Shown: positions 15,445 through 53,296 of the stretch, one piece after another
Position numbering within the stretch: the stretch's first letter is position 1
Layout of the letters: every line of letters starts with the position of its first letter
From: Solea solea
Taxonomy: Eukaryota > Chordata > Actinopteri > Pleuronectiformes > Soleidae
Assembly (NCBI RefSeq): GCF_958295425.1
Contig: NC_081146.1
Location: 12,322,985-12,386,984 of the forward strand
Direction: 5' to 3'
Length of the DNA: 64,000 nucleotides
Program-made: the position numbers and the translations under genes
The notes under the pieces: model-generated
Told to the model about the DNA's origin: nothing
The model's input: the letters and a program-made list of their open reading frames with translations, nothing else
The model's database searches: none

Positions 15445-18400
15445 GTAAGTCATTCCACTGACACACCTGAAACACTGTTTAGAGCAAATCAAGATTTACT
15501 GGTCCATTTTGCTGTGAAAATATTATTGTTTTGCTTGAGTAAATCTCCTGAAAATTTCTCACTAATTCTCCACACCCTTGTTTTGAAGAAACTAAATGGC
15601 CTTCCAGTCACATTTACTGTTCCTCGTATGTCTTTGGCACAAACATTCACTTTATTTCACTCTCTCAACCTTGTTTAGAGCAAATCAAATCAGTGTTCAT
15701 GGTTCAAATTTGCTGTAGAGCCTTTTTCTTTTTTCTTTTGCTGATGCAGTAGAGAGACACATGAATGAGACCAATAGTTTCTGTCTCTGCTACATTTTAT
15801 CAACTTCTGGGGACAAATGTACGTTGTTGCAGTTCTTTTTTGGTGCAAAGTTTGACATTAACATCCCAGGAAAATAAATACTGTACATGACAGATTTCCA
15901 CACTGTATGTAATTTAAGCTTGCTAGATTCTTCTAATGTGCATATACTCAAAGACCCACATTGTTTTATGTAGTAATAACTGAACAATGCAAAAGTAAAT
16001 AGTAGTAAATAAAATGACCACTTTGACCACATTTTCAGCAACTGTACTTTTGAATGTTACTAATTAGTGGCTCTCAGTCTCTTGAATGAGTCAAACTCCA
16101 CAAACACTGGGTACTACATTTCCAGTAATGCACCTCAGTAGTGCAACAAAAGACATTATACAGCTGTTTACTTGATATTTTTTTTAATCCATGGTAATAT
16201 GATCTAAGGAACACTTTCAACAATGTAAGCAAACGTCTGTTACATTCAAATCATTGAATACCAACAGTGTAGTGGTGTATAAATCTGGAGCAATCTGTTT
16301 TAATGTCAAGACAGCAATATTGCACTAGTATGATTGAAAACACATATAAGTGTCCCCTAAAAGTTACAGAAGTGTATTCTACTGTGCAAAAAAAGGATGT
16401 TAAGCAGTTTGACGGGACTAAAGCTTCTTATCCCCGTGCTGCTGCTGTGTATGCGCAAATGCTCCCTCACAGGTCTGATAGTTTTACTTGACAGAGGTTA
16501 TCAGCACCAGTTCAATTCAAAGCTTCTTTTTTTCTTACTTACTGTACGTGTACGATACTGTACGTGTCTGTCATGGAATCACCACTTTTGTGTTTCATAC
16601 AGAAGTTAATTCACTCTTGGGGGCTGGTGGACCCAGTCCCGGTTGACATGTCACCTCTCTGTCACAGAGATGACGTACACACTCACATTCACAATGTGGT
16701 CAGAGTTTGAGGGCCTGGAGGAAAAAAACTTAACAGACACTGTGAGGTCTCTAGCCACTGCACCACTGTGCCACCCCATTCAAGGCTGTGCTCAGTCTAA
16801 TCAATGCAGAGGCACACAAAGACGTATGGTTACTTTTCCTGCAGTTAATGTACCATAGTGTGCAGTACCATACAACCTAACTGAAACAAGAAAGAGCCTT
16901 ATCACTGTCAAATACAGACAGCAGCAAATGTATTGCTATTATAATAACAAAAGTCAACAATGACATGTCCAGGTTTATATTCTGTTTCTGTGAAATAGTT
17001 TTTTGCTTCTTGTTACTATCTGTTTTGGCCAGTTTATTTATAAGAGGCGTCAGAGTGGGAAGTAAAGGTGGAGTATCCTCATTAAAACACCCATAAAACA
17101 CCCACCCACCAATACATCACCCAGCGGTCTGGAAGTTTATGTTCCTGTGGTTGCTCAAATAGAAAAGTGGTATCAGCCTCCGTCTGTGCGGTTGTGTAAT
17201 TTCACATCCTAACAGCTCTGTTGTGTGTGGTTTGTTCCTCAGGGTGATGTGCAATCCCAAGCTGCGATCCGTTCCATCGCACGGCAAGTGTGTGAACAAC
17301 TCATCCAGAGTGAGTAATGACTGTTTATCATGTGCACCAGGCTATTTTTAACTTGTGTCTCCTGTTTTTTTTATATAAGTTTATATAAAGGTTTTATTGA
17401 TCTAAACCTATGCCTCTATCACTTGCAGGCCATTTGTCTCGCTATAACTCCATACTGAACCAGATCCCCGTCCAGTCGTCAGCATCAGTCCGAACAGTTC
17501 CTGGACCTCCAGGGGAACCAGGTAGGAGAGGCCTTCCGGGACTGCAGGGAGAGCAAGGCGTACCTGGCAGACCAGGTTTCCCTGGTACCAATGGCCAGAG
17601 TGGACAACCAGGAGAAAGAGGTGAACGCATACATCTTATTTTCTCTGTAATAAACAGAATAAACTATTTTGGGTAGAGAATGAACCAGTTTTTTTTTATA
17701 AAGACGAACGTGAATACAGAAGTAGGCCAAGCAACATTAATTGATGTCCCAAAATAAAAAGGTTCCTCCACAGCCAGAGCCACTTATTTGTATGGTTATT
17801 GTGTATAAACATGCTGTTCAACATAGACATTCAGCTGCTGAGAGTAGTCTCTCTGTTAAATAATATAATACTTTATGTAAGCAAAGATGCATTTTTATTG
17901 TCAGGTCTGATTTTTTATAGCGATAAGAACAGTTGGAGCTTCAGCGTCGCTGCTCATTTGCTGTAAAGTATGTCACGGCTTTTTGGACTCTGTGGTCACC
18001 TACAGACAGACAGACTCACAGTAAAGGTCACAGGTCCTACAAGGTTCAGTCCAAACCACAGAGACACAGTAGCTCCAGTATCCATGAGGTCATTGTCCTT
18101 GCCATGAGCCTTTTGAACAAAAATAGCCTTTATGAGGCTCCGTCATCATCACTGAAACATGCAACCCACACTGAAGAACCACACACTGAATGTAGGGAAA
18201 CTGAGAGCAGTCAGGAAATATCAAGTGGTTACATCGTCCTCCTCAATCCTTTGATTCTCCCCTGTTACATTTATTATCATACACACACAGTCTTGTACAA
18301 CATTCTTAGTGAGGACTAGGGTTGCAAAATTCTGGGAATTTTGAAAAATTGGACATTTTCCATGGGAATTAACAGGACTTTATGGGAATATAATGGAATC

Positions 18401-21400
18401 TTTCAGATCAGAACTTAAATGTAGCTGATAAATAATATATTGTACCATAATCTTGGCTAAAATGAAGCATATACAGTTGAATATCGGTCGAGTCAATTCC
18501 CATAAATTCATAGTAATTCCCATGGAAAGTTTCCCATTTTGAAAAATCACGGAATTTGGCAACCCGAGTCTGATTCGCTGACTCACTGCAGAAGCTCAGT
18601 TCATGTCTGTTTTTAACCAGTGTCTTAGTGTGAGAAGTTATACATTGGAGCTTTAATCTAAATCTTACCTCAACCCTAAATCCAAGTCTTAACCCCCAAA
18701 AAGCCCCTTAAAGTTGTGAGGACCATTCAAAATGTCCTCACAAGGTCAAATTGTCCTTACAGACTTGATAAACCTTGATTTTTTTTCTCAATTAACAAAA
18801 TGTATAAATAAATGTATAAATGCTGTCCTGTACAAAGGGAATCTAGTGTCACACAGAGTAACACAGTTCTGTCTTATCTTGAAATCATTTGCTCTCTGCT
18901 TCATCGTTAATTCTCCCTTTTCAGCGAAGCAGGACAAATTAATGTTTTAGTTTTATGTTTGTTTGTTTTTTGTTTTTTTTTTATATGAGAGTAAGATGAA
19001 GAAATATTCCATTAGGTCATTTTAACTGCTGTTTTACCACACAGGAGCCAGCTGTGATGAACGCAACATGCAATGAAAGAGTTATAGAGAAATAAAATCA
19101 TGTAAAAATGTTTTATCACAAGTCAAGTAAAAACCACTGTGTATGATGTTAGTATTAAATGTTCACAGCTGGTTGTACCAAAGCCATTTTTCAATGGGTA
19201 ATACTAAAAGTAATACTTTATATACTGTTAGGTTGTGTAGTTAATTCCAGTGGGTGGTAGCACAGGAGTCATCACAAGGATCATGGACATAACTTTTAGA
19301 CTTTTCTCATGTTTTGTTCATGTTTCATGATTTGGCCTTGTTTGTAAATCAAACCATGTGAAGTTTAAGGTAAAATGTTGCGTCTGTTGAGCCACTTAAT
19401 GACAAATAAGTGGACATCTGAGGGAGTTTGTTGTTTCAATAATATTCATATGAATATGATAATCATGCTATAATATAATAAAACTCAGAGTTACATTTTT
19501 AAGCTTCAGCAGTGGGATAACCAATAGTCTGCTGGCTCCAACTAAAAACTGTTTGCCAATTTTGCCAAAAATAAAATAACATTTAAAAAAATTGTCAAAA
19601 TGACATGTGAATAAATGTGTATCTTTTCGAACTGTACCTGTTTCTAGGTCTGCCAGGAGAGAAAGGAGAGCGGGGGAGTACAGGGATCGGGAATCAAGGA
19701 CCTCGAGGACCACCTGGACCTCCAGGTAAAATACACACAAACACAGATGACAGTCTCAATATTCAGGCAACATTTGTAGCAGCTGCAGCAACTGTAAAAC
19801 ATGTTAATTCACCGTTTTCAGCCTGTGACCCCGACGGAGCTACTGTATGTGGAATGTTATTTCTTTGTGGTCCCTCTGAAACAAACATTTCAAATATTCA
19901 AACAATGGAATTAAAGCGCACAGAGACATAATCTATTTTGGGTTTACTTTCTGTTTACCAAGAAAGGCGAGCAGACGTTTCGCACGATGAATATAATTCC
20001 CAGTATTGATTTTTCTTTGTGCTGTGTGGGGTTTGAGATCTGTGTTATGAAAATGTGTCCCCCTCAGGGCTGGGGATTTTTTTTCTGTTTACTGTTGTGC
20101 GATCAATACGCACAGAACAAGCTGACAAAACTCACTGCAAACTTTTCTCTGATCTAATAACTGTTTAAAAAAAATGCACAAACTTCTGTGTACGAGAATG
20201 AAAATCTCTGCTGAGACAATGGTATAGGGGGAGCGCTGTCTGTCTTTATCTGCTGTGTATTTTTTGGGAATATTTGTGGTGTGATAATTTTAGTTCTTGG
20301 CAAATGAAACTCCCCCTCAACATTCCGATTTTGTATTTCTGCTTACTGCTCTGCAGACAGAAAACCGAAGCCTGTGGCTAAATTTCAGCTTGGAACTCTT
20401 GTTCTTTCTCCTGCCTGCAAGACATTCACTATCATCTCTCTCTGATGCTGAAATGACAAGCACACATTCGCTGTCCCCATTTCTTTATGTCATGCTGTTG
20501 CTGCAGCAGAGGGGGATTTGGAGGAGATTGAAGAAGTGATACTCTGATGACAGCATGCAGCGTGTGATGGCACATTTCTTCACTTTATTTTCTCTGTCTT
20601 CTCTTATACCTTCTCACTAGGTGTTGATTTGTCAAGCATTTATTGGCAAATGACTGTGTGCGCTTGCTTGTCTCTTATAACACCCTTATCCCTCCATCCT
20701 CAGGTCTGACAGGTGAAGGACGGACAGGCAGCCAGGGCCCACCTGGTCGGCCTGGTAACCCAGGGACAGCAGGGAGGCAGGGGAATCCAGGCAGCACGGG
20801 ACCAGCTGGCCCACCAGGATACTGTGACCAGAACTCCTGTCTGGGATACAATGTGGGAGGTAAGTTTCTTTCATTTGTTTTTAGTGGTCTTGTATAAAGT
20901 ACCTAAAAGTATCTTCCCAGAAAATGACTTTGGTAGAAGTTGAAGTCACTTTTTATAATAGTACTTAAGTAAAATGTAAAGTAAATGTTAGTATCAAAAG
21001 TAATGTTTTGATATAAAATGTACGTAAGTTTTCTTTTTCTCTATGGAGCTCCCCCTACAGTTTTGGAGTTTTTACAACACCACCGTAAACTACCGCTTTA
21101 TCCTTACTGTCGTAACAGCTCACCGCTGACGCTTCCCCCTCCCTTCAACCTCTCCTGCCTGTGGAGCCATGTCCATGTCAATCAGCGTCCGTTTTGATTA
21201 AGTCTGTAATACTGTTTGCCACTTTTAGCAGTTTACAATTTTCAGTTTCTAGACAGCCTTTTTCACCTGGAAACTGAAGTTTATGAACTGCTTATTGTCC
21301 TGAGCCAAAGTTTTTATTTATAGAAAATAAGCGCTCTTAGCTCAGGGGACATCTGGGAATCTGCAGGTCTTTCGCTGCCTCATTTGGTAAGGTTGTCACT

Positions 21401-24400
21401 TAGGTAAACTAAAACAAAGGATTTTAAACCCCAAAGTCCCAAGATAACACATTTGAATTACTGATGGAGGCAGCAGTGGATTAACAAATCCATGATGATG
21501 TGTGCCATGATGTTAATTCACAGATTTTCTCTACGGACGCTGGTTCAAGAAGAAAGTGTTTTATAAACTTTACAAAGGTTTTTAGAAAGAAGAAAAGTAT
21601 TAAATGTGGAGCTCAGATTACCAGAAGAGAAATCATGAACACATCTGTAAAATTCAAAACATATCAAAGTCTGTCCTGCTCCCGAGTTCACTCTGAGTTA
21701 ACAGTCTTTTGTGTCTAAAAACTCTGACTACTTGGGCAAAATTGAGCATGCAACTCTCATTCTGCACCACGGAAATAAACAAGACACATGTTCTTGATAA
21801 TCTTCTTTGGCTTCCAACGTTGGGGATATGACAGAAAACGTTTGCATATCACTGCCATAGACAAAAGCAGACACAGAAATTATTCACAGTAAGTCAGGCT
21901 CTGGCATTTGAAATAAAAATAACATTTTGACTGGATTATTTCCCGAAACTAAATCAGAACACAAAACATCCAGACTGTACAAAAACAGCGTTGTTTATTT
22001 AGACTTATTTTATCTGTATTTGTTCTTTTGCAGCTGAACATTATTCTGTCATTAGACATTTTTAAGCGAACTGAGGTATTAAATCAAAGTCTGTGTTTTG
22101 TTTTGCTAATTTCCTTAACGTAAACAGTTTAAACAGTCGAACCACGTCTGGTGCTTCCATTTTATAAACCAGCTTTTATAAGAAGTATTGTTTTCACTGG
22201 GACAGCCGTTTCTTCACACAGTTATTGTTCTCATGAAGCTCATAAAGAGTAATCTGGCTTTTATAGTTGTTCCACTGTGAAGTTTACACATTTACATCCA
22301 CACTGCTGGATTAACACGTCGACTGTCACTGACCCAAACTGTCTGTCTCTATCAGGGTTGCAAAATTTTGTGAATTTTCAAATTTGGAAAGGTTGGGAAA
22401 GTAATATATTGTAGCATAATCCTGGTTAAAACAATCAGATTTGATGCCATACTAAACTATGACATTTTTGTCTCTTTTTGAACAACATTCTATACTATGA
22501 CTTTGTGTCAAATTTTGGACGACATACTAAAGTATGACTATTTTGTGAAATTTTGGACGACATACTAAAGCATGACTTTTTTGTCAAATTTTGGACGACA
22601 TACTAAAGTATGACTATTTTGTCAAATTTTGGACGACATACTAAAGTATGACTTTTTTGTTTGATTTTGGACAACATCCTAAACTTTGAAATTTTAGTGA
22701 CAACATACTAAACCAGGTCTACACTGCCACAGATGGTAATCAAACCCACAATCTTTGACAATAGAGGACAGTGTCTTATCCATTAGGCCACTGAGGCCCA
22801 TTCTCTGATTGATTTTTTGGATGGTTTTGCATCACATACTAAGCATTGACATTTTTGTCTCATCTTGGACGCATTTTAGTATGTCGTCCAAAATGAGACA
22901 AAAAAGTCATAGTATAGTATGTCGTCCAAAATTTGACAAAAAAGTCATAGTATAGTATGTCGTCCAAATTTTGACAAAAAAGTCATACTTTAATATGTCG
23001 TCCAAAATTTGACAAAAAAGTCATACTTTACTATTGCGTCCAAAATGTGACAAAATAGTCATAGTATAGTATGTTGTCCAAAATTTGATAAAATAGTCAT
23101 AGTATAGTTTGTTGTCCAAAATCACACGAAAATGTCATAGTATAGTTTGTTGTCCAAAATGTGACAAAATAGTCAAAACATAGTATGTCGTCCAAAATGT
23201 GACAAAATAGTCATAGTATAGTATGTCGTCCAAAATGTGACAAAATAGTCATACTTTACTATGTCGTCCAAAATTTGACAAAATAGTCATACTTTACTAT
23301 GTCGTCCAAAATTTGACAAAAACGTCATAGTATAGTATGTCGTCCAAAATTCGACAAAAAAGTCATAGTATAGTATGTCGTCCAAATTTTTACAAAAAAG
23401 TCATACTTTAATATGTCGTCCTAAATTTGACAAAAAAGTCAGAGGTTAGCATGTCGTCCACATTTTGAAATAAAAGTCATACTATAGCATGTCGTCCAAA
23501 ACTTGACAAAAAAGTCATAGTATAGCATGTCGTCCAAAATGTGACAAAATAGTCATAGTATAGTATGTCGTCCAAAATCACACGAAAATGTCATAGTATA
23601 GTATGTCGTCCAAAATCGGTCAAAAATGTCATAGTATAGTATGTCGTCCAAAATCAGTCAAAAATGTCATAGTATAGTATGTCGTCCAAAATTTGACAAA
23701 GTAGTCATAGTATAGTATAGTATGTCATCCAAAATTTAACAAAAAGTCATACTTTAGTACGTCGTCCAAAACTTGACAAAAAAGTCATAGTATAGCATGT
23801 CGTCCAAAATTTGACAAAAAAAGTCATAGTATAGCATGTCGTCCAAAATTTGACAAAAAAGTCATAGGTTAGTATGTCGTCCAAATTTTGACAAAAAAGT
23901 CATAGGTTAGTATGTCTTCCAAATTTTGACAAAAAACTCATACTATAGGATGTCGTCCAAAATTTGACAAAAAAGTCAGAGGTTAGCATGTCGTCCAAAT
24001 TTTGAATTAAAGTCATACTATAGCATGTCCAAAAATTGACAAAAAAGTCATAGGTTAGCATGTCGTCCAAAATTTGACAAAAAAGTCATAGGTTAGTATG
24101 TCGTCCAAAATTTAACAGAAAAGTCATAGGTTAGTATGTCATCCAAAAATTGACAAAAAAGTCATAGTATAGTATGTCGTCCAAAATGTGACAAAAAAAG
24201 TCATAGGTTAGTATGTCGTCCAAATTTTGACAAAAAAGTCATAGGTTAGTATGTCGTCCAAAATTTGACAAACAAGTCATAGTATAGCATGTCGTCCAGT
24301 ATGTGACAAAAAAGTCATAGTATAGTATGTCGTCCAAAATTTGATAAAAAAGTCATAGTATAGTATGTCGTCCAAAATCGGTCAAAAAAGTCAAAGTACA

Positions 24401-27400
24401 GTATGTCGTCCAAAATCGGTCAAAAAAGTCAGAGTATAGTGTGTCGTCCAAAATCAGTCAAAAATGTCATACTATAAAAGCATGTCGTCCAAATATTTAC
24501 CAAAAATTCATACTATAGCATGTCGTCCAAAATTTGACAAAAAAGTCATAGTATATAGTATGTCGTCCAAAATGTGCCCAAAAAGTCATAGTACAGTATG
24601 TTGTCCAAAATTTGACAAAATAGTCATAGTATAGTATGTCGTCCAAAATTTGACAAAAAAGACATAGTATAGTTTGTCATCTAAAATTTGACAAAAAAGT
24701 CATAGTATAGTATGTCATCCAAAATTTAAAGAAAAAGTCATAGTATATTATTTCGTCCAAAATTTAACAAAAAAGTCATACTTTAGTACGTCGTCCAAAA
24801 CTTGACAAAAAAGTCATAGTATAGCATGTCGTCCAAAATTTGACAAAAAAAGTCATAGTATAGCATGTCGTCAAAAATTTGACAAAAAAGTCATAGGTTA
24901 GTATGTTGTCCACATTTTGACAAAAAAGTCATAGGTTAGTATGTCGTCCAAAATTTGACAAAAAACTCATACTATAGGATGTCGTCCAAAATTTGACAAA
25001 AAAGTCAGAGGTTAGCATGTCGTCCAAATTTTGAATTAAAGTCATACTATAGCATGTCCAAAAATTGACAAAAAAGTCATAGGTTAGCATGTCGTCCAAA
25101 ATTTGACAGAAAAGTCATAGGTTAGTATGTCGTCCAAATTTTGACAAAAAAGTCATAGTATAGCATGTCGTCCAAAATGTGACAAAAAAAGTCATAGGTT
25201 AGTATGTCGTCCAAATTTTGACAAAAAAGTCATAGGTTAGTATGTCGTCCAAAATTTGACAAACAAGTCATAGTATAGCATGTCGTCCAAAATGTGACAA
25301 AAAAGTCATAGTATAGTATGTCGTCCAAAATTTGATAAAAAAGTCATAGTAAAGTATGTCGTCCAAAATCGGTCAAAAAAGTCAAAGTATAGTATGTCGT
25401 CCAAAATCGGTCAAAAAAGTCAGAGTATAGTGTGTCGTCCAAAATCAGTCAAAAATGTCATACTATAAAAGCATGTCGTCCAAATATTTACCAAAAATTC
25501 ATACTATAGCATGTCGTCCAAAATTTGACAAAAAAGTCGTAGTATATAGTATGTCGTCCAAAATGTGCCCAAAAAGTCATAGTACAGTATGTTGTCCAAA
25601 ATTTGACAAAATAGTCATAGTATAGTATGTCGTCCAAAATTTGACAAAAAAGACATAGTATAGTATGTCATCTAAAATTTGACAAAAAAGTCATAGTATA
25701 GTATGTCATCCAAAATTTAAAGAAAAAGTCATAGTATATTATTTCGTCCAAAATGAGACAAAAAAGTCATACTTTAGTATGTTGTCCAAAATTTGACAAA
25801 ATAGTCATAGTATAGCATGTCGTCCAAAACTTGACAAAAAAGTCATAGTATAGCATGTCGTCCAAAATGTCATAGTGTAGTATCCAATATCACACAAATA
25901 CACCTCAGGATTGCAGGCGTGACTTGTTCCAAACAGGGATTGAACCCCGGTCTTTTATGTTAAAGTCAACAGTGCTAACCACTATACCAACTTCATGGAG
26001 CCATTCTTAATTATGTTGTCCTAAATGACACAAAACATCACGGTATAGCATGTCGTCCAAAATGTCATAGTATAGTATCCAAAAATCACACAAATACGCC
26101 TCCGGATTGCAGGCGTGACTTGTTCCAACCAGGGATTGAACCCGGGTTTTTTATGTTAAAGTCAACAGTGCTAACCACTATACCAACTTCATGGAGCCGT
26201 TCTTAATTATGTTGTCGTCCACATTTTGAAATAAAAGTCATACTATAGCATGTCGTCCAAAATTTAACAAAAAAGTCATAGTATAGCATGTCGTCCAAAT
26301 TGTGACAAAATAGTCATAGTATAGTATGTCGTCCAAAATCACATGAAAATGTCATAGTATAGTATGTCGTCCAAAATCAGTCAAAAATGTCATAGTATAG
26401 GATATCGTCCAAGATCAGTCAAAAATGTCGTAGTATCGTATGTCATCCAAAATTTGACAAAGTAGTCATAGTATAGTATGTCGTCTAAAATTTGACAAAA
26501 AAGTCATAGTATAGTATGTCATCCAAAATGAGACAAAAAAGTCATACTTTAGTACGTCGTCCAAAACTTGATAAAAAAGTCATAGTAAAGCATGTCGTCC
26601 AAAATTTGACAAAAAAAGTCATAGTATAGTATGTCGTCCAAATTTTGACAAAAAAGTCATAGGTTAGTTTGTCGTCCAAAATTTGACAAAAAACTCATAC
26701 TATAGCATGTCGTCCAAAATTTGACAAAAAAGTCAGAGGTTAGCATGTCGTCCAAATTTTTAATTAAAGTCATACTATAGCATGTCGTCCAAAAATTGAC
26801 AAAAAAGTCATAGTATAGCATGTCGTCCAAAATTTGACAAAAAAAGTCATAGGATACATGTCGTCCAAAATTTAACAAAAAAGTCATAGGTTAGTATGTC
26901 GTCCAAAAATTGACAAAAAAGTCATAGTATAGTATGTCGTCCAAAATGTGACAAAAAAAGTCATAGGTTAGTATGTCATCCAAATTTTGACAAAAAAGTC
27001 ATAGGTTAGTATGTCGTCCAAAATCGGGCAAAAATGTCATAGTATAGTATGTCGTCCAAAATTTGACAAAGTAGTCATAGTATAGTATGTCGTCCAAAAT
27101 TTGACAAAAAAGTCATAGTATAGTTTGTCATCCAAAATTTAACAAAAAATTCATAGTATAGTATTTTGTCCAAAATGAGACAAAAAAGTCATACTTTAGT
27201 ATGTCGTCCAAAACTTGACAAAAAAGTCATAGTATAGCATGTCGTCCAAAATTTGACAAAAAAAGTCATAGTATAGCATGTCGTCCAAAATTTGACAAAA
27301 AAGTCATAGGTTAGTATGTTGTCCAAAAATTGACAAAAAAGTCATAGGTTAGTATGTCGTCCAAATTTTGACAAATAGTCATAGTATAGCATGTCGTCCA

Positions 27401-30400
27401 AAACTTGACAAAAAAGTCATAGTATAGCATGTCGTCCAAAATGTCATAGTATAGTATCCAAAATCACACAAATACGCCTCAGGATTGCAGGCGTGACTTG
27501 TTCCAAACAGGGATTGAACCCCGGTCTTTTATGTTAAAGTCAACAGTGCTAACCACTATACCAACTTCATGGAGCCATTCTTAATTATGTTGTCCTAAAT
27601 GACACAAAACATCACGGTATAGCATGTCGTCCAAAATGTCATAGTATAGTATCCAAAAATCACACAAATACGCCTCCGGATTGCAGGCGTGACTTGTTCC
27701 AACCAGGGATTGAACCTGGGTTTTTTATGTTAAAGTCAACAGTGCTAACCACTATACCAACTTCATGGAGCCGTTCTTAATTATGTTGTCGTCCACATTT
27801 TGAAATAAAAGTCATACTATAGCATGTCGTCCAAAATTTGACAAAAAAGTCATAGTATAGCATGTCGTCCAAATTGTGACAAAATAGTCATAGTATAGTA
27901 TGTCGTCCAAAATCACACGAAAATGTCATAGTATAGTATGTCGTCCAAAATCAGTCAAAAATGTCATAGTATAGGATGTCGTCCAAAATCAGTCAAAAAT
28001 GTCGTAGTATAGTATGTCGTCCAAAATTTGACAAAGAAGTCATAGTATAGTATGTCGTCTAAAATTTGACAAAAAAGTCATAGTATAGTATGTCATCCAA
28101 AATGAGACAAAAAAGTCATACTTTAGTACGTCGTCCAAAACTTGATAAAAAAGTCATAGTAAAGCATGTCGTCCAAAATTTGACAAAAAAAGTCATAGTA
28201 TAGTATGTCGTCCAAATTTTGACAAAAAAGTCATAGTATAGTATGTCGTCTAAAATTTGACAAAAAAGTCATAGTATAGTATGTCATCCAAAATGAGACA
28301 AAAAAGTCATACTTTAGTACGTCGTCCAAAACTTGATAAAAAAGTCATAGTAAAGCATGTCGTCCAAAATTTGACAAAAAAAGTCATAGTATAGTATGTC
28401 GTCCAAATTTTGACAAAAAAGTCATAGGTTAGTTTGTCGTCCAAAATTTGACAAAAAACTCATACTATAGCATGTCGTCCAAAATTTGACAAAAAAGTCA
28501 GAGGTTAGCATGTCGTCCAAATTTTTAATTAAAGTCATACTATAGCATGTCGTCCAAAAATTGACAAAAAAGTCATAGTATAGCATGTCGTCCAAAATTT
28601 GACAAAAAAAAGTCATAGGATACATGTCGTCCAAAATTTAACAAAAAAGTCATAGGTTAGTATGTCGTCCAAAAATTGACAAAAAAGTCATAGGTTAGTA
28701 TGTCGTCCAAAATCGGGCAAAAATGTCATAGTATAGTATGTCGTCCAAAATTTGACAAAGTAGTCATAGTATAGTATGTCGTCCAAAATTTGACAAAAAA
28801 GTCATAGTATAGTATGTCATCCAAAATTTAACAAAAAATTCATAGTATAGTATTTTGTCCAAAATGAGACAAAAAAGTCATACTTTAGTATGTCGTCCAA
28901 AACTTGACAAAAAAGTCATAGTATAGCATGTCATCCAAAATTTGACAAAAAAAGTCATAGTATAGCATGTCGTCCAAAATTTGACAAAAAAGTCATTGGT
29001 TAGTATGTTGTCCAAAAATTGACAAAAAAGTCATAGGTTAGTATGTCGTCCAAATTTTGACAAAAAAGTCATAGTATAGCATGTCGTCCAAAATTTGACA
29101 AAAAAAAGTCATAGTATAGAATGTCGTCTAAATTTTGACAAAAAAGTCATAGTATAGCATGTCGTCCAACATTTTACAAAAAAGTCATAGGTTAGTATGT
29201 CGTCCAAAATGTGACAAAAAGTCATAGTATAGTACTTCGTCCAAAATGAGACAAAAAAGTCATACTTTAGTATGTCTTCCAAAACTTGACAAAAAAGTCA
29301 TAGTATAGCATGTCGTCCAAAATGTGACAAAAAAAGTCATAGTATAGCATGTCGTCCAAAATGTCATAGTATAGTATCCAATATCACACAAATACGCCTC
29401 AGGATTGCAGGCATGACTTGTTCCAACCAGGGATTGAACCCGGGTCTTTTTTATGTTAAAGTCAACAGTGCTAACCACTATACCAACTTCATGGAGCAGT
29501 TCTTAATTATGTTGTCCTAAATGACACAAAACATCACGGTATAGTATGTCGTCCAAAATCACACGAAAATGTCATAGTATAGTGTGTCGTCCAAAATCGG
29601 TCAAAAATGTCATAGTATAGTATGTCGTCCAAAATATGACAAAAAAAGTCATAGTATAGTATGTCGTCCAAAATTTGACACCGTAGTCATAGTATAGTAT
29701 GTCGTCTAAAATTTGACATAAAAGTCATAGTATAGTATGTCAACCAAAATTTAACAAAAAAGTCATAGTAAAGTATTTCGTCCAAAATGAGACAAAAAAG
29801 TCATACTTTAGTACGTCGTCCAAAACTTGACAAAAAAGTCATAGTATAGCATGTCGTCCAAAATTTGACAAAAAAAGTCATAGTATAGTATGTTGTCCAA
29901 AATTTGACAAAAAAGTCATAGGTTAGTATGTTGTCCAAAAATTTACAAAAAAGTCATAGGTTTGTATGTCAACCAAATTTTGACAAAAAAAGTCATAGGT
30001 TAGTATGTCGTCCAAAATTTGACAAAAAAGTCAGAGGTTAGCATGTCGTCCAAATTTTGAATTAAAGTCATACTTTAGCATGTCGTCCAAAATTTGACAA
30101 AAAAGTCATAGTATAGCATGTCGTCCAAAATTTAGCAAAAAGTCATAGGTTAGTATGTCTTCCAAAAATTGACAAAAAAGTCAAAGTATAGTATGTCGTC
30201 CAAAATCGGTCAAAAATGTCATACTATAAGCATGTCGTCCAAAATTTGACAAAAAAGTCATAGTATAGTATGTCGTCCAAAATTTGACAAAAACGTCATA
30301 GTATAGTATGTCGTCAAAAATTTGACGTAAAAGTCATAGTATAGTATGTCATCCAAAATTTAACAAAAAAGTCATAGTATAGTATTTCGTCCAAAATGAG

Positions 30401-33400
30401 ACAAAAAAGTCATACTTTAGTACGTCGTCCAAAACTTGACAAAAAAGTCATAGTATAGTATGTCGTCCAAAATTTGACCAAAAAGTCATAGGTTAGTATG
30501 TTGTCCAAAATTTGACAAAAAAGTCAGAGGTTAGCATGTCGTCCACATTTTGAAATAAAAGTCATACTATAGCATGTCGTCCAAAACTTGACAAAAAAGT
30601 CATAGTATATAGCATGTCGTCCAAAATGTGACAAAATAGTCATAGTATAGTATGTCGTCCAAAATCGGTCAAAAATGTCATAGTATAGTATGTCGTCCAA
30701 AATCGGTCAAAAATGTCATAGTATAGTATGTCGTCCAAAATCAGTCAAAAATGTCATAGTATAGTATGTCATCCAAAATTTAACAAAAAAGTCATAGTAT
30801 AGTATTTCGTCCAAAATGAGACAAAAAAGTCATACTTTAGTACGTCGTCCAAAACTTGACAAAAAAAGTCATAGTATAGTATGTCGTCCAAAATTTGACA
30901 AAAAAGTCATAGGTTAGTATGTTGTCCAAAAATTGACAAAAAAGTCATAGGTTAGTATGTCAACCAAATTTTGACAAAAAAAGTCATAGGTTAGTATGTT
31001 GTCCAAAATTTGACAAAAAACTCATACTATAGCATGTCGTCCAAAATTTGACAAAAAAGTCAGAGGTTAGCATGTCGTCCAAATTTTGAATTAAAGTCAT
31101 ACTATAGCATGTCGTCCAAAATTTGACAAAAAAGTCATAGTATAGCATGTCGTCCAAAATTTTACAAAAAAGTCATACTTTAGTACGTCGTCCAAAACTT
31201 GACAAAAAAGTCATAGTATAGCATGTCATCCAAAATGTGACAAAAAAACTCATACTATAGTATGTTGTCCAAAATTTGACAAAAAAGTCATAGGTTAGTA
31301 TGTTGTCCAAAAATTGACAAAAAAGTCATAGGTTAGTATGTCGTCCAAATTTTGACAAAAAAGTCATAGGTTAGTATGTCGTCCAAAATTTGACAAAAAA
31401 CTCATACTATAGCATGTGGTCCAAAATTTGACAAAAAAGTCATAGTATAGCATGTCGTCCAAAATTTGAAGAAAAAAGTCATAGTATAGCATGTCGTCCA
31501 AAATTTGACAAAAAAGTCATAGGTTAGTATGTTGTCCAAAAATTTACAAAAAAGTCATAGGTTAGTATGTCGTCCAAATTTTGACAAAAAAGTCATAGGT
31601 TAGTATGTCGTCCAAAATGTGACCAAAAAGTCATAGTACAGTATGTCGTCCAAAATCGGTCAAAAAAGTCAAAGTATAGTATGTCGTCCAAAATCGGTCA
31701 AAAATTTTATACTATAAGCATGTCGTCCAAAATTTGACAAAAAAGTCATAGTATAGTATGTCGTCCAAAATTTTACAAAAACGTCATAATATAGTATGTC
31801 GTCAAAAATTTGACGTAAAAGTCATAGTATATAGTATGTTGTCCAAAATGTGACCAAAAAGTTATCGTTTAGTATGTCGTCCAAAATGAGACATAGTTTA
31901 GCATATCGTCCAAAATTGCTCAAAAAGTCATACTTTAGTATGTTGTCCAAAAAGTCATTAAAATGTCATAGTTTAGTATGTTGTCCAAAAAGCCACCAAA
32001 ATGTCTTCAATGTATTTAGTTAGACGTATGATTTTTTATTCAGACTTTTTCAGATAATAATACAATTTAGCATCTGAACATTATTTACTGCATCTACTGA
32101 TGCTGCAAACAGATAAGCAGATAAATCCCTCAAACTGAGTTATCCCTTTAATCCCCTCAGTGTTTCCTAAACATGGGAAAATCTACCCATCGTATTCCAG
32201 ATATTATTCCTGAAATTATCATATTTATATACTGTAATTTGAAGGAATTCACAGTTTAGTGTGTGCCTGTGTTTATAAAGTGTTTTTAAATGAGAATTGC
32301 CTGAGTTATTACAGGTTTAACTCTGCAGTCGTGGTGAGTTACTGCAGTAAACCGCCTCACATTGTCTGGTGTTATTCACAACAAGGCATGCATGCTGTAT
32401 GGTCTACCTACACTTCTGTTTTCTGTGTTTTCTGGAAATCTTTATTTGTACTTTCTTGTTTGTAGAAAGAGAATAAAGATCTTTATTATTTATTTGTAAG
32501 GATTGGTCACACTGTAATAGAAGCAGATTCCGAGACACATTTTTCAGCCTCCTAAAAACCGTAACCTAACAGCTGGAAAAGCGTCTGTCGCTGTGGTTTG
32601 AGAGCTTTGGTGTCTTTGGGTTTTCCTCTTGATGTGAAATAACATCTTCTCTCTTACTTTTTTTCCCCTCCCTCTGTTCCCCTCCCTCCGTTTACTCGTC
32701 TTTCTGACTGAAGTTCAACAGGACTATGGGAATGATTACTGAGGAGCTTTCTCCAACATCCTCTCCTCTCCTCCTCCTCCTCCTCCTGCGCTCAACTCCT
32801 TCTGTTCCTCCCTATGTGCCCTGCATAGATTGAAACTGAGGGGAACTGATAAATTTGGTGATTCTCTCAAAGCCTGAACATTTCTTGGGATGGATAATAA
32901 CTCCTGGCCCTGGCCTTAAACCTCTCATCTCGGCACTGTTTTTCACCCAAATTATTCTGGCAGCCTACATTTCATTTGAGCAGAAGAGTGTGTGAAGTTC
33001 TGTTTCTGGAGTTTGTAACAAACAAACAAACAAACAAGAGCCTGATTTGTTTTAGAGCAACTGAGTTGAAGTCTCAGTCACGCAAGTTTTCTCACGATTG
33101 TTTATAACGAACAGAGACTGGACGTTCATCCTGGAACTGTGAGGCTGTGAGTTTCATGTCTCAGAGGTAACATTGGATTTCGTTACCTCTCGTAAGACCG
33201 ACAGTCCAGCGCTGTGATGACTGCAGTGCCAGCTGTCCACGCACGACTCGCTTTGCTACAGCGGCCTACACTTAACGCCACTCCAAGCTCAAATCTTTTC
33301 AAAGCTAATCTTATCTTAATACTGATGAATTCCTTTGATGCTGGTTGGCTGCATTTATTACTAACCAACGCCTTCTGTGTGTATGTTTTGCATATTCTAA

Positions 33401-34042
33401 GCCGGGCAGAAATCTACATTTCATCCCTAATTTGACTCCAATGTGACGGTTTCATTTATTGATCAGATCCGTGCAATATGTGTGATCAGATTTCCCTCTA
33501 ATTATAACCATTAACCAACCCTCTTGCTAACCCAGTCTTTGGAGACTACCCTATTCTTGGTCTCTTAGTATGCTTGAACCCAGTCCTAATGTCAGTGATA
33601 TAAAATTAGACCAATTGCTAAAAAACTAAATCATCTCAAACTGCTGTGACGTTGAGATTTCAACCTGTGCATGCTTCCCATTCCTACTGTGCTTCTCAAA
33701 CTGACCCCGAATATTCCCACCACCCCAGTCCAACCCCTGCCTCACGGTGGCTACCAGCCCTACAATCCCCCGTACAACCCTGCTGCTGCTGTGGCTTACA
33801 ACAACGACCAAGGAGGTCAAGATGAGGAGGAGGAGGAGGAGGAGGAAGAGGAGGGAGAGGAAGAGCAGGACCCCTACTACCATCGCCGTTACCCCTCTCA
33901 GTACTACCCACAGCAGCCTCCCCAACTGGCTCACACTCGCGGCGGTTACTCTGAGGACGTGGAGCTGAGGTCGCCGGGTGTCGCCAGGAGGTTTTCACGT
34001 GATGTTGTAGTCATGGAGGAGAGTGAGGAGGGAGGAGTTTAG
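291..34042 (+). CDS. col14a1: Collagen alpha-1(XIV) chain, 3' part of gene (FACIT collagen)
   Basis: Coding exons read at 291-344, 7109-7162, 11973-12026, 12158-12229, 15409-15444, 17243-17309, 17429-17620, 19648-19725, 20704-20859 and 33729-34042, with 32714-32742 as a possible alternative last exon. All have AG acceptors and GT donors, and the phases join. The 10-exon reading gives 358 codons plus stop. The first five exons are in-frame multiples of 9 bp (54, 54, 54, 72, 36) encoding unbroken Gly-X-Y, as expected for the end of COL2. They are followed by a non-collagenous linker (NC2) with one Cys, then COL1 with two short imperfections, then GYCDQNSC, the Cys pair that FACIT collagens carry at the COL1/NC1 border. 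The product is a homotrimeric extracellular matrix protein bound to fibril surfaces. The linker resembles collagen XIV ([18 protein letters not shown]) more than XII, and the neighbouring mrpl13 agrees. The paralogue (a or b) cannot be told. The 5' part is outside the window. Confidence 0.85.
2645..2765 (+). repeat. Teleost interspersed repeat fragment
   Basis: Begins AAAGGACCAGTGTGTAACAT and runs through CTTATTAGCAGAAATGATAT and TTGGTTTTCGTAGCCTTA. I recognise the pattern from many fish genomes but cannot give a family name. Related fragments occur at 12365-12400, about 50015-50230, and in reverse orientation at about 34850-34930 and 56213-56290. Confidence 0.4.
2766..3720. mobile_element. 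Old non-autonomous DNA transposon, interrupted by a hAT element
   Basis: The left end reads GGCGCTTTTCCATTAGTACC, a terminal motif of common non-autonomous fish DNA transposons. The likely right end is a decayed inverted version near 3700-3720 (GTGGAAGGAAAACGAC). The younger hAT element at 3137-3651 splits it. No coding capacity. The outer boundaries are uncertain. Confidence 0.4.
3137..3651. mobile_element. Non-autonomous hAT-type element with 8-bp target duplication
   Basis: Terminal inverted repeats CAGGGGTGTCAAACT (3137) and AGTTTGACACCCCTG (ending 3651) are perfect over 15 bp. TTCTAAGA occurs immediately on each side (3129-3136 and 3652-3659), a perfect 8-bp target-site duplication as expected for hAT transposition. 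The element is 515 bp and has no transposase ORF. The intact duplication suggests a fairly recent insertion. Confidence 0.82.
9562..9661. repeat. Two adjacent short hairpins
   Basis: First: 12-bp perfect arms ACAAGAAGCAGC (9562-9573) and GCTGCTTCTTGT (9592-9603), loop of 18. Second: 17-bp arms 9622-9638 and 9645-9661, CAGAAGAGTGTCTGAGA against its complement with a single G-T wobble, loop of 6. The second stem is stable but shorter than a normal pre-miRNA. No function is assigned. Confidence 0.6.
10622..10654. repeat. Perfect 14-bp inverted repeat
   Basis: GAAGCATGTCTGGA (10622-10635), a 5-base loop TTTGT, then TCCAGACATGCTTC (10641-10654). The outer flanks also pair partly. It lies within the col14a1 intron with no neighbouring gene or element that would explain it. 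Confidence 0.65.
12960..13325 (+). mobile_element. tRNA-derived SINE
   Basis: The head resembles a tRNA: GTGGGTCAGAGTTGTC followed by GGTCGAGGGTTTGATTCCC, a good Pol III B box. The body (CCTGGGAAAGATGCC) and the 3' part ending AAAAGCGCTATATAAATAC match my memory of common teleost tRNA-SINEs. Same orientation as col14a1. No target duplication was established. Confidence 0.65.
13702..13730. repeat. CA dinucleotide microsatellite
   Basis: An uninterrupted run of about 14 CA units in a col14a1 intron. Confidence 0.9.
15445..17242 (+). other. col14a1 intron, 1.8 kb
   Basis: No exon seen. Around 16620-16790 is a degenerate minus-strand copy of a fish repeat whose complement starts GGTGGCACAGTGGTGCAGTG, a head I recall from fish SINE-type repeats. 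Confidence 0.45.
17243..17620 (+). CDS. col14a1: col14a1 NC2 linker and start of COL1
   Basis: Exon 17243-17309 (67 bp) encodes [20 protein letters not shown] and continues into exon 17429-17620 through a split Ser codon. The linker has about 46 residues, looks helical, and carries a single Cys in ARQVCEQ. COL1 begins at VPGPPGEPG. In FACIT collagens this region provides the flexible hinge and interchain disulfide near the COL2/COL1 boundary. That role is family knowledge, not read from the sequence. Confidence 0.88.
17621..19647 (+). other. col14a1 intron, 2.0 kb
   Basis: No exon seen. It contains the hAT-like repeat at 18317-18567. A 128-codon open stretch at 17933-18319 has no recognisable domain and no splice context. 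Confidence 0.5.
18317..18567. mobile_element. Short DNA-transposon-like element with inverted ends
   Basis: Left end TAGGGTTGCAAAATTCTGGG; right end GGAATTTGGCAACCCGA. The ends are imperfect inverted repeats of about 16 bp. Internal sequence has many GGGAATT-type words. This is a familiar non-autonomous vertebrate repeat, but no clean target duplication is visible. A truncated relative lies at 22354-22434, just beside the satellite array. Confidence 0.5.
19648..20859 (+). CDS. col14a1: col14a1 COL1 exons and COL1/NC1 junction
   Basis: Exons 19648-19725 and 20704-20859, both phase 1. They encode [20 protein letters not shown] and then [20 protein letters not shown], continuing to [17 protein letters not shown]. 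Two places have a Gly dipeptide instead of a triplet (GI-GNQ and GE-GRT). Such imperfections are typical of FACIT COL1. The GYC-x4-C motif marks the start of NC1. The donor at 20860 is GTAAGT in phase 1, so the next exon must supply two bases after a G. Confidence 0.88.
19726..20703 (+). other. col14a1 intron, 1.0 kb
   Basis: I see no exon, repeat or other feature here. Confidence 0.5.
20860..22353 (+). other. Start of the last col14a1 intron
   Basis: Ordinary intronic sequence with no exon or named repeat seen. It leads to the truncated repeat at 22354 and then to the 38-bp array. Confidence 0.5.
22354..22434. mobile_element. Truncated copy of the 18317 element
   Basis: Starts AGGGTTGCAAAATTTTGTGA and contains AATATATTGTAGCATAATCC, matching AATATATTGTACCATAATCT in the fuller copy at 18317-18567. 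The right half is missing. Within about 20 bp the sequence becomes recognisable 38-bp monomer, so the element marks the left border of the array. Confidence 0.55.
22446..22872 (-). repeat. Inverted left segment of the 38-bp array
   Basis: Monomers here read as the reverse complement (GACGACATACTAAAGTATGA). At 22840-22910 the arms face each other: TTTTTGTCTCATCTTGGAC up to 22870, then GTCCAAAATGAGACAAAAAA from 22886, about 15 bp apart. The right side continues in the other orientation to 32005. The segment contains the tRNA-Arg-like relic. Confidence 0.85.
22718..22800 (-). other. tRNA-Arg-like relic inside the array
   Basis: The minus strand reads CAGTGGCCTAATGGATAAGA, close to the D-arm and A box of vertebrate tRNA-Arg, and further on AAGATTGTGGGTTTGATTAC, close to its variable region and B box. 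The stems are decayed, so I call no anticodon. It is more likely the head of an old SINE or a tRNA pseudogene than a working tRNA. Confidence 0.55.
23740..25760. repeat. Higher-order repeat of about 1.03 kb, two copies
   Basis: Approximate copies 23740-24765 and 24766-25760. Shared landmarks: CTTTAGTACGTCGTCC (offset 1028), TTTGAATTAAAGTCATACTA (offset 1029) and CATACTATAAAAGCATGTCG (offset 991). The length is close to 27 monomers of 38 bp. Confidence 0.75.
25926..26002 (-). other. tRNA-like cassette 1
   Basis: Minus strand: GTTGGTATAGTGGTTAGCAC (A box TGGTATAGTGG) and, about 30 bases on, CCGGGGTTCAATCCC (B box). The intervening anticodon-arm region does not fold canonically. It has Pol III type 2 promoter elements but is probably a SINE head, not a functional tRNA. 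Confidence 0.65.
26123..26198 (-). other. tRNA-like cassette 2
   Basis: Same unit as cassette 1, 196 bp away. Here the T-arm pairs fully (CCGGG, loop TTCAATC, CCTGG with one G-T), and the ends GCTCCAT and TTGGAAC pair at five of seven positions as an acceptor stem. Confidence 0.7.
27501..27576 (-). other. tRNA-like cassette 3
   Basis: Copy of cassette 1 at +1574 bp, nearly identical, including the GACCGGGGTTCAATCCC variant. Confidence 0.68.
27697..27772 (-). other. tRNA-like cassette 4
   Basis: Copy of cassette 2 at +1574 bp. It differs by one base at the T-stem (CCAGGTTCAATCCCTGG), which turns the wobble pair into a perfect 5-bp stem. Confidence 0.7.
29421..29497 (-). other. tRNA-like cassette 5
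   Basis: A single cassette, with the same A box and B box (CCGGGTTCAATCCCTGG). It is flanked by truncated monomers and by the same AATTATGTTGTCCTAAATGA tail as cassettes 1 and 3. Confidence 0.68.
32006..33728 (+). other. End of the last col14a1 intron, or alternative 3' region
   Basis: After the array the sequence becomes ordinary. A long pyrimidine-rich tract (32640-32710) precedes the possible exon at 32714. A CTC-repeat lies at 32758-32787. No AATAAA is seen between 32743 and 33728. Confidence 0.5.
32714..32742 (+). CDS. col14a1: Possible alternative terminal exon of col14a1 (short NC1)
   Basis: A strong pyrimidine tract and TTTCTGACTGAAG precede the exon. With the phase-1 G from 20859 it reads VQQDYGNDY and then TGA (32740-32742), giving a chain of 263 codons in this window. 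It competes with the 33729 exon, which begins in the same phase and also with VQ. Against it, no AATAAA lies close downstream, so its 3' UTR would have to run to about 35370. Confidence 0.5.
33729..34042 (+). CDS. col14a1: Terminal coding exon of col14a1 (long acidic, Tyr/Pro-rich NC1 tail)
   Basis: The acceptor is CCACCACCCCAG. Joined in phase to 20859 it gives [15 protein letters not shown], continues with a run of about ten Glu residues in a GAG/GAA repeat, then [18 protein letters not shown], and ends EESEEGGV before TAG (34040-34042). The tail is about 104 residues, with an acidic centre and tyrosine-rich flanks. I do not recognise it from the mammalian protein, so the assignment rests on phase, splice signal, open frame and position. 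Confidence 0.62.
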
Positions 34043-36001: not shown

Positions 36002-46655
<10,654 letters not shown>

Positions 46656-51784: not shown

Positions 51785-51997
51785 AAGGTTTTATTGTTTT
51801 CCTGGGCTCTGCAAAGCTGCCGTTTGATGATGATGTCATCAGGAAAACTCACCACTCCTCTCAACACCGTAGCTCCTCCTGGTGCGGGCTAGTCCGTGCA
51901 CATCCGGTTGCGTACAATCAACCGCAGAAGAAGAGCTACTCTCTTCTTTAAAAAAAAAATACTGTCTTTGTAGCTGTTGAGCATATCAGTTGAGAAC

Positions 51998-52282
51998 ATG
52001 TCTTCAAAAAAAAGATTAGTTTGCTCTGTTCAGGGTTGTAGTAAACAATGCCAGACAATCCACAAGCTCCCCATCAATGAGAAAACAAAAGCTCAGTGGA
52101 TATTTTTCGTATTTGATGGGAAAACCCCTGCTACATTTCCCAAACATCTCCATGTATGTGGCAACCACTTCACAGAGGGTTGTTACACAAACTTTGCGCA
52201 ATTCAAAGCAGGACACAGCACCACACTTCGCCTAAAAGAAGGAGCAGTGCCAACAATACGTGCTGGATTACCTGCAGCAGAA
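51998..52282 (+). CDS. THAP-type zinc-finger exon, copy 1
   Basis: Starts at ATG 51998 (MSSKKRLVCSVQGC) and ends before GTAAGT at 52283, phase 0, 95 codons. THAP landmarks: C-x4-C (CSVQGC), HKLP, a Trp (KAQW), C-x2-H (CGNHF), and KEGAVPTIRAG, matching the AVPTIF box with Arg for Phe. THAP domains bind DNA through one zinc and occur in P-element transposases and many host genes. If read through, the frame ends at 52468 with no recognisable domain, so splicing is more likely. Possible downstream exons are 58269-58530 and 58655-58821, which fit in phase. It could instead be an orphan duplicate. Confidence 0.65.
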
Positions 52283-52559
52283 GTAAGTATTTCAAACAGT
52301 AAAACTGTCTGTGTCCTCGTTCTGCCGTTAAGCATTAGCGATAGCCGGCTACAGGCTAAGCTACACGCGTTCGCTCGTGTTTCACTTGCGACTTCTTCTG
52401 TCTCTGGGTCAGACTCCGGGTCAAAGGCGTATGGGATTACGGCGCGGGCTCGTAACACAGCCATTTAACACTGTTTTGATAATGACTAGCAGAGCATCCA
52501 TCGTGCCAGGGGGGGAGCTGCGTGTCTGAGAGCTGACGTTTTACGAATTACGTCACTTC

Positions 52560-52690
52560 CAGGTACCTGGCCAATCACAGGACAGTGAGAAAGCTCTCGT
52601 TGGCTGGCCAATAACAACGCAGTCCGCGTTGTACTTTCAACCATAGAAGAACTACGCTTGTTGTAACTGCTGATCGTGTCGGCTGAGAAC
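52560..52690 (+). promoter_or_regulatory. Promoter-like region before THAP copy 2
   Basis: Two CCAAT boxes in GGCCAAT context at 52571-52575 and 52608-52612, 37 bp apart, as in many NF-Y promoters. A CRE-like TTACGTCA lies at about 52549-52556. The start codon follows at 52691. Confidence 0.45.
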
Positions 52691-52978
52691 ATGTCGAAAA
52701 AAGGTTCCGCGAGTGTTTGCTCTGTTCTGGGTTGTGATAAAAAATACCAGACCCTCCACAAGCTCCCCACCAAGGAGCAACGAAAAGATCAGTGGATATC
52801 TTTCATATTTGATGGGAATATCCCTGCTACATTTCCCAAATACCTCCATGTATGTGGCAACCACTTCACTCAGGATTGTTACACAAACTTCCGGCAATAT
52901 AAAGCAGGACACAGCACCAAACTTCACCTAAAGGAAGGAGCAGTGCCAACAATACGTGCTGGGTTACCTGAAGCAGAA
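52691..52978 (+). CDS. THAP-type zinc-finger exon, copy 2
   Basis: ATG at 52691 (MSKKGSASVCSVLGC), 96 codons, ending EAE before GTAAGC at 52979. It has the same landmarks as copy 1: CSVLGC, HKLP, DQWISF, CGNHF and AVPTIRAG. Copies 1 and 2 are a tandem duplication about 693 bp apart. Similarity extends upstream (GAGAACATGTC) and into the following intron (TCTGGGTCAGACTC). Both copies keep an open frame, start codon and donor, so neither looks like a simple pseudogene. Confidence 0.68.
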
Positions 52979-53296
52979 GTAAGCATTATTTATGTGCTTG
53001 TTCTGTCGTTTAGCATTAGCATGTATGTGCATGTGTGTTTATCATCTCGGTAACCACAACGTTACCCAAGCTACAAGCGTCCTGCAGCAGTATTTGCGAT
53101 GGGCGTGGTTCATTTGTCACAGTCTTCTGACTCTGGGTCAGACTCATTGCAAGCCGTGCATCCGCTTTTCCAGAGGGGGAGTTGCATAGACATACGTAGA
53201 CGCCTCATTGAGCAGGTTGGTCCGTTGCTGCGTTACGTCAGCGCGTCCGCCATATTGGATGTGGCAGATCTGCTTGTAAACTAATAAAAGGAAATG

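What the first reader, a model, noticed from the sequence alone, without database searches (positions are those of the whole stretch)
25881..29520. tRNA-like cassettes have been captured and multiplied within the satellite
Five segments carry an A box (TGGTATAGTGG) and a B box (GGTTCAATCCC) on the minus strand, in nearly identical form, and four sit in a duplicated pair 1574 bp apart. So a SINE-like or tRNA-derived unit was inserted in the array and then amplified with it. One copy (27697) has a perfect T-stem. B boxes can bind TFIIIC, so the cassettes could act as Pol III start sites or as boundary elements antisense to col14a1.
Basis: partly seen in the sequence, partly recalled or inferred. 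Interest (0 to 1): 0.75.

Follow-up and report, generated by a model that had tools for sequence, protein, structure and literature searches.

The report
tRNA-derived modules carried by dispersed satellite
Five short tRNA-like pieces in this repeat array are local copies of a module found in other arrays of the same 38-base repeat across this genome, in one orientation in every copy read; further arrays of that repeat carry different tRNA-derived pieces, some of them apparently intact tRNA genes.

Summary
Five 113-115 bp minus-strand cassettes each have perfect A and B boxes; four form a pair duplicated in tandem by 1574 bp. None of 200 shuffles of the window gives such a box pair. They are tRNA-derived but degenerate: Rfam tRNA 17-25 bits, gathering score 29. 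The sequence up to GGAACAAG is the head of a SINE interspersed in this genome; the SINE body is missing.

The local-insertion story is too small. The cassette, with its own 3' tail, recurs in ten other arrays of the same 38-bp satellite, opposite to the satellite strand in 30 of 30 loci read. So one captured module spread with the satellite, then duplicated here. A tRNA-Arg(CCT) relic at 22725-22797 belongs to a second class that elsewhere includes tRNA genes up to 67 bits. In eight arrays picked only by satellite string, 12 of 12 inserts were tRNA-related, in 5 arrays. The satellite 16-mer occurs 146,586 times. Pol III or boundary function is untested.

The parts
22448..22683 (-). 38-bp satellite, inverted part of the array
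   Evidence: TRF; satellite-core hits on minus strand 22466-22655 and 22853
22877..31990 (+). 38-bp satellite, main part, 238 copies by TRF (cassettes included in the span)
   Evidence: TRF; 221 core hits
22725..22797 (-). tRNA-Arg(CCT)-derived relic, same strand as the satellite around it; B box damaged (read by eye)
   Evidence: Rfam tRNA 29.7 bits; 57 of 73 identical to recalled tRNA-Arg-CCT; score 82 against shuffle maximum 22 (glocal)
25899..26011 (-). SINE-head cassette A1 (A box 25979-25989, B box 25936-25946)
26095..26207 (-). SINE-head cassette B1 (A box 26175-26185, B box 26132-26142)
27473..27585 (-). SINE-head cassette A2 (A box 27553-27563, B box 27510-27520)
27669..27781 (-). SINE-head cassette B2 (A box 27749-27759, B box 27706-27716), best Rfam tRNA score of the five
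29393..29507 (-). SINE-head cassette C (A box 29475-29485, B box 29430-29440)
25799..27372 (+). first copy of the 1574-bp tandem block that carries cassettes A1 and B1
   Evidence: 97.8% identity of 25799-26735 to 27373-28309
27373..29064 (+). second copy of the block, with cassettes A2 and B2; offset shifts to 1765 and 1689 inside
   Evidence: 98.5% and 98.6% for the later parts
24065..25841 (+). another block duplication (24065-24850 = 25056-25841) without any cassette
   Evidence: 97.3% at offset 991

Best explanation
The window holds one array of a very abundant, dispersed 38-bp satellite. Early in the history of this satellite the tRNA-derived head of a SINE was captured in it, antisense to the repeat, without the SINE body. 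Arrays descended from that event carried the module to many chromosomal sites. Here the module reached three copies and then a recent 1574-bp tandem duplication made five (the duplication is shown; unequal exchange as its cause is inferred). The cassettes are passengers of array evolution; they keep A and B boxes and might start short Pol III RNAs that stop at the first T-runs about 100-125 nt past the A box, but this is inference only. The satellite took up tRNA-derived sequence more than once: this SINE head, a second SINE-like element, tRNA-Arg(CCT) genes and a tRNA-Leu-like class.
For: Matches in 37 further places, each reaching at least query base 104 of 115, that is into the tail; all 30 loci fetched (5 of the window, 25 outside it in ten arrays) lie in the satellite, opposite strand 30 of 30. 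Interspersed SINE in the same genome matches the cassette up to GGAACAAG (score 92). Within-array history from copy differences and block identities. A cassette-free block duplication of the same kind in the same array. Cassettes not significantly better conserved than the rest of the block: 2 changes in 226 against 19 in 711, Fisher p 0.13; 0 of 9 variable columns in the boxes, p 0.13. Arg class in satellite at 25 of 30 loci, the window's own among them. 12 of 12 inserts tRNA-related in satellite-chosen arrays.
Against: How arrays move is not shown: the array edges compared share nothing beyond satellite-like sequence. The genome search scores only the best candidates (40 of 587) and so favours well-kept copies; 12 of its 42 matches were not fetched. 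Three of eight satellite-chosen arrays had no insert in the 2.5-4 kb read. In loci brought in by the tRNA searches at least one insert, 1238 bp in L061, has no B box, so not every insert is tRNA-related.
Confidence: 0.75

Rival explanations
1. A SINE inserted locally into this array and was then amplified only here.
For: Five copies differ by only 1-7 substitutions and share flanks in part.
Against: The same module, tail and orientation occur in ten other arrays.
Confidence: 0.07
2. The cassettes are functional Pol III promoters or TFIIIC boundary elements, kept by selection (not exclusive of the best explanation).
For: A and B boxes intact in 5 of 5 here; B box intact in 23 of 23 and A box in 18 of 23 distinct cassettes that passed a motif filter; A- and B-box windows tie for rank 2 of 105 in conservation over 11 arrays; T-runs follow at a suitable distance.
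Against: Search and filter favour conserved cores; other stretches rank as high; two of five copies broke the T-stem and no box conservation beyond chance shows among the five; no structure signal (z -0.9 to -1.5).
Confidence: 0.15
3. The satellite integrates preferentially beside Pol III genes, so arrays repeatedly start next to tRNA genes or SINEs and take them up.
For: At least four different tRNA-derived classes inside the arrays; one array edge abuts a SINE 3' end (L048, read by eye).
Against: Orientation is fixed within the two large classes, which fits one capture each followed by spread; only 1 of 16 edges listed is at that SINE.
Confidence: 0.15
4. The array is a foldback-type or MITE-type transposon whose terminal inverted repeats are the 38-bp units.
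For: The two ends of the window array are inverted copies; one other array, on C27 near 16.53 Mb (L068, L072, L078), also changes orientation. Tetris is a known case (PMC4079207, abstract).
Against: Most arrays read are one-directional; no shared termini. Target-site duplications of arrays were not tested; none is seen by eye at the window array.
Confidence: 0.08

Closest known systems
V-SINEs of fish (DANA of zebrafish)
   Same: tRNA-derived head; the cassette's tRNA part matches the head of interspersed SINEs in this genome whose body looks like the DANA/Mermaid type (DANA listed as a tRNA-derived V-SINE in passages of PMC3747384).
   Different: The cassette has only the head plus an unrelated 24-nt tail and sits in a satellite; the family name of the SINE is recalled, not tested against a library.
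PcH-sat of the limpet Patella caerulea
   Same: A satellite connected with a tRNA-derived SINE (passages of PMC11121367).
   Different: There the monomer itself is partly SINE and lacks the A and B boxes; here the 38-bp monomer shows no match to the SINE of this genome beyond short words and the boxes are kept.
Schistosome satellite with a functional Pol III promoter
   Same: Satellite carrying a Pol III promoter (one passage of PMC2220036).
   Different: There the promoter is internal to the satellite unit; here it is in modules between monomers, and activity is unknown.
Tetris foldback transposon and TIR-220 satellite (Drosophila virilis)
   Same: Tandem repeats in inverted arms that grew into satellite arrays (abstract of PMC4079207).
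   Different: No termini found here and most arrays read are one-directional.
Tandem tRNA gene clusters (L076 of this genome)
   Same: tRNA genes repeated every few hundred bases.
   Different: L076 has no 38-bp satellite; in L074 the spacer is the satellite.

Membership tests
tRNA-derived SINE (V-SINE type) | tRNA-related head with A and B boxes | tested here: met
   match to interspersed SINE heads
tRNA-derived SINE (V-SINE type) | tRNA-unrelated conserved body | tested here: not met
   match to L011 ends at GGAACAAG; the 24-nt tail scores only 12-18 against three SINEs
tRNA-derived SINE (V-SINE type) | 3' tail shared with a partner LINE | not tested
   no LINE library at hand
tRNA-derived SINE (V-SINE type) | target-site duplication | tested here: inconclusive
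   only direct repeats that are satellite sequence were found around the cassettes; the repeats would hide a real one
tRNA-derived SINE (V-SINE type) | copies interspersed by retroposition | tested here: not met
   for the cassette form: all 30 loci fetched, of 42 matches, lie inside the satellite
functional tRNA gene | score above tRNA model cut-off and intact cloverleaf | tested here: not met
   17.4-25.1 bits against 29; 14-16 of 21 pairs
Pol III / TFIIIC element | occupancy or transcript | not testable with these tools
   no ChIP or RNA data at hand
satellite DNA | long head-to-tail tandem arrays at many sites | tested here: met
   TRF period 38, 238 copies; 146,586 exact 16-mers in 642 Mb, reversed control 0
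foldback or MITE element | defined terminal inverted repeats and target-site duplication | tested here: inconclusive
   inverted ends here, no shared edges elsewhere; target-site duplication not tested

The most novel reading that the evidence does not exclude
The 38-bp satellite is a selfish repeat that uses exchangeable Pol III modules: arrays that acquire a tRNA or SINE promoter spread or amplify better, for example through Pol III transcription, TFIIIC clustering or fork stalling, so unrelated tRNA-derived modules have been recruited again and again, and some arrays became tRNA gene factories that also breed tRNAs with altered anticodons.
Probability: 0.12. Interest if true: 0.85.

Novelty: new variant of a known kind. 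Interest (0 to 1): 0.5.

Why it matters
SINE-derived satellites are known, but a dispersed satellite that carries several unrelated classes of tRNA-derived module, the two best sampled each in a fixed orientation, and including tRNA genes that look intact, would link satellite spread, Pol III chromatin and tRNA gene birth in one system. It also gives a test bed: many arrays with and without modules in one genome, so the effect of a B box on array length, homogenisation and chromatin can be measured directly.

Tried and rejected
Chance motif match: rejected. Intact tRNA gene: ARAGORN finds none at default; the Arg-like relic appears at 95% and the five cassettes only at 85% of its threshold, where 22 hits appear in the window; Rfam scores below gathering. 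RNA-structure constraint: MFE z-scores of the five cassettes -0.90 to -1.53 and a fold that is not a cloverleaf. tRNA-Gln as direct parent: best of 30 recalled tRNAs (local scores 44-50, shuffle maximum 34), but the SINE head fits better under the same scoring (58-64 for a recalled SINE; 92 for locus L011 with cassette C). Related sequences in IMG/VR: none for exact cassette or satellite strings, none for a SINE string; a short degenerate string hit five contigs in which neither ARAGORN nor Rfam at gathering score finds a tRNA. The SINE string is absent from the prokaryote contigs. Protein search with a cassette ORF: no homologue. Papers: six sequence strings in no held paper; no title or abstract on a tRNA-bearing satellite in fish in the listings. 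Single-linkage clustering of inserts merged nearly all classes and was not used.

Results against the reading: (161 inserts, 74 distinct, in loci mostly brought in by tRNA searches) one 1238-bp insert of L061 has no B box; one search shows inserts the motif did not class, among them a piece in L019 that looks like the SINE 3' end. Of the 21 block mismatches, 10 lie at 26663-26722 where the offset changes, so the non-cassette rate there is overstated.

Rows dropped before counts: one search used 23 distinct cassettes from 30 loci (motif filter that itself asks for a near B box); one row per array, 11 rows; one search listed 16 edges and compared the 15 with more than 40 bp of flank; one search left out 6 of 74 distinct inserts (N runs or 700 bp and longer); one search showed 27 chosen loci. 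L080-L083 overlap L079 and were not counted as arrays; L092 proved to lie outside the array. L067 was left unassigned by the motif and counted there as opposite; one search shows it in sense. L044 is the window's own copy beside the inversion and was also counted as opposite; the repeats next to it are on its own strand.
Full report
What is there. The window holds a 38-bp tandem repeat: 22448-22683 in reverse and 22877-31990 forward. Five minus-strand cassettes of 113-115 bp interrupt the forward part. Each has TGGTATAGTGG and GGTTCAATCCC without mismatch, starts 43 or 45 nt apart. Consensus A-B pairs: 5 in the window, none in any of 200 dinucleotide shuffles.

Local history. The cassettes fall in three kinds, A (25899, 27473), B (26095, 27669) and C (29393). 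A1-A2 and B1-B2 differ by one base, A-B by five to seven, C from the rest by three to seven and a two-base indel. The pair A-B lies in a block 25799-27372 that is repeated head to tail at 27373-29064 (97.8, 98.5 and 98.6% in three stretches). The array has another such block duplication with no cassette in it, 24065-24850 = 25056-25841, 97.3%. So cassettes are copied by the ordinary growth of the array. In the 937-bp stretch there are 2 changes in 226 cassette bases and 19 in the other 711 (Fisher p 0.13; 10 of the 19 lie where the offset changes); none of 9 variable cassette columns falls in the 22 box columns (p 0.13). Neither speaks for selection on the boxes.

tRNA character. Rfam's tRNA model gives 25.1, 22.0, 20.1, 20.1 and 17.4 bits, below its gathering score of 29. 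Laid on a cloverleaf, 14 of 21 (A copies) or 16 of 21 pairs (B, C) form, against about 8 in letter shuffles. RNA folding is not remarkable. Against 30 recalled vertebrate tRNAs the best is Gln for all five. A recalled fish SINE head fits better (58-64; shuffles at most 37).

The parent is in the genome. The own-genome search answered after several failures. Of eight loci around other TGGTATAGTGG sites, three (L009, L011, L013) are interspersed SINE-like elements; cassette C matches L011 with score 92 from the A box to GGAACAAG, after which the SINE goes on into a body that the cassette lacks. The cassette's last 24 nt match nothing in those SINEs. The DANA/Mermaid name for this body is recalled.

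Not a local event. Searching the genome with cassette C gave 42 matches (40 of 587 candidates were scored): 5 in the window and 37 elsewhere. All 30 loci fetched lie in the same 38-bp satellite; 25 are outside the window, in ten arrays on contigs C1, C24, C32, C35 and C40. The cassette is opposite to the satellite strand in 30 of 30. The tail (CTGCAATCC... with changes) is present in the aligned copies from all of these arrays. A shared tail and fixed orientation point to one capture followed by spread with the satellite. The nearest relatives are on the same contig, 0.4 and 3.1 Mb away.

A second module. At 22725-22797, between inverted and forward parts of the window array, lies a relic of tRNA-Arg(CCT): Rfam 29.7 bits, 57 of 73 identical to the recalled gene. 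A genome search with it gave 41 matches (40 of 46 candidates scored). Of 30 loci fetched, 25, the window's own among them, are in the 38-bp satellite and 5 are not. The module is in sense to the satellite in 23 of 25 by motif; the other two are L067, in sense by alignment, and the window's own copy, whose neighbouring repeats are on its strand. One array, L074, carries seven tRNAs of 32-67 bits, among them Arg-CCT copies with a normal anticodon and one Arg-like body with a Gly anticodon. Elsewhere ARAGORN, at relaxed thresholds, reads Gln, Trp and Leu anticodons in Arg-like bodies. A tRNA-Gly cluster, L076, has no satellite.

Sample by satellite only. The exact 16-mer GTATGTCGTCCAAAAT occurs 77,865 times forward and 68,721 times reverse in 642 Mb, its reversed control never; at one 38-bp monomer per match that is about 5.6 Mb, a lower estimate. 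Eight arrays were picked only by a satellite string: two, six. This is not a random draw. In 2.5 to 6.5 kb of each, five had inserts of 45 bp or more, 12 in all; three had none. All 12 score above each of 60 shuffles against 24 recalled tRNAs, the weakest only just (32 against 31). They are a second SINE-like element (5 inserts), the SINE head of the window (3) and a tRNA-Leu-like class (4). In loci brought in by the tRNA searches not every insert is tRNA-related: a 1238-bp one in L061 has no B box. The Leu-like sequence has 17 matches between 6517008 and 6529087 of C36 and 3 near 7.36 Mb (40 of 80 candidates scored); apart from L088 these were not read.

Edges. Sixteen array edges were listed and 15 compared: nothing is shared beyond satellite-like sequence. 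One edge abuts the 3' end of the SINE (L048), one a LINE-like tail (L074; kind recalled). Junction phases differ between classes. So I cannot say how arrays move.

How it probably works. Shown: a SINE head inside the satellite, its presence in many arrays in one orientation, local block duplication. Inferred: unequal exchange; spread of arrays with the module on board; separate capture of at least four tRNA-derived classes. Not shown: transcription. If Pol III did start at the cassettes, the first T-runs lie at 123-147 nt from the cassette start, so RNAs would be short and end in satellite.

Setting. Collagen ORFs are on the plus strand at 17401-17676 and 20628-20897; MRPL13 is at 40521-40700 minus. 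That agrees with col14a1 by recalled synteny, but an exon after the array was not proved (the ORF at 33656 has no Pfam hit).

Verdict. Observation confirmed; interpretation right about the tRNA/SINE origin and co-amplification, wrong about scale. A satellite with a captured SINE is a known kind; a dispersed satellite with several tRNA module classes is described in no title or abstract that my searches listed.

Noticed in passing
window 22725-22797: tRNA-Arg(CCT)-derived relic close to the point where the satellite changes orientation.
   Followed up: yes
L074 (G000:C41:16087500-16095500): Satellite array with seven tRNA-Arg-class genes, some apparently intact, one with a Gly anticodon; all in sense to the satellite.
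   Followed up: partly
L045, L047, L050-L052, L078: Arg-like tRNA bodies with Gln, Trp or Leu anticodons inside the satellite: possible tRNA identity drift.
   Followed up: no
L088 (G000:C36:6527300-6529800): tRNA-Leu-like modules with a long variable arm, antisense to the satellite, repeated along the array.
   Followed up: partly
L048 start and L074 start: Array edges that abut the 3' end of a SINE with a TGAC tail and a LINE-like TTCTGA tail.
   Followed up: no
L068, L072, L078 (one array on C27 near 16.53 Mb): Orientation switch inside the array, as in the window.
   Followed up: no
L061 95-1332: A 1238-bp stretch near the start of an array, between satellite-like hits, without a B box; a non-tRNA insert or flank.
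   Followed up: no
window 22353-22379: CAGGGTTGCAAAATT start just left of the array, resembling a hAT-type transposon end (recalled); a near copy at 18317.
   Followed up: no
window 51974-52468 and 52667-53053: Two adjacent ORFs with THAP domains, similar to each other by eye.
   Followed up: no
L076 (G000:C3:20586000-20592000): Nine tandem tRNA-Gly(TCC) genes, mostly about 590 bp apart, with no satellite.
   Followed up: partly
window 42997-43066: Perfect TAATT repeat, 14 copies.
   Followed up: no
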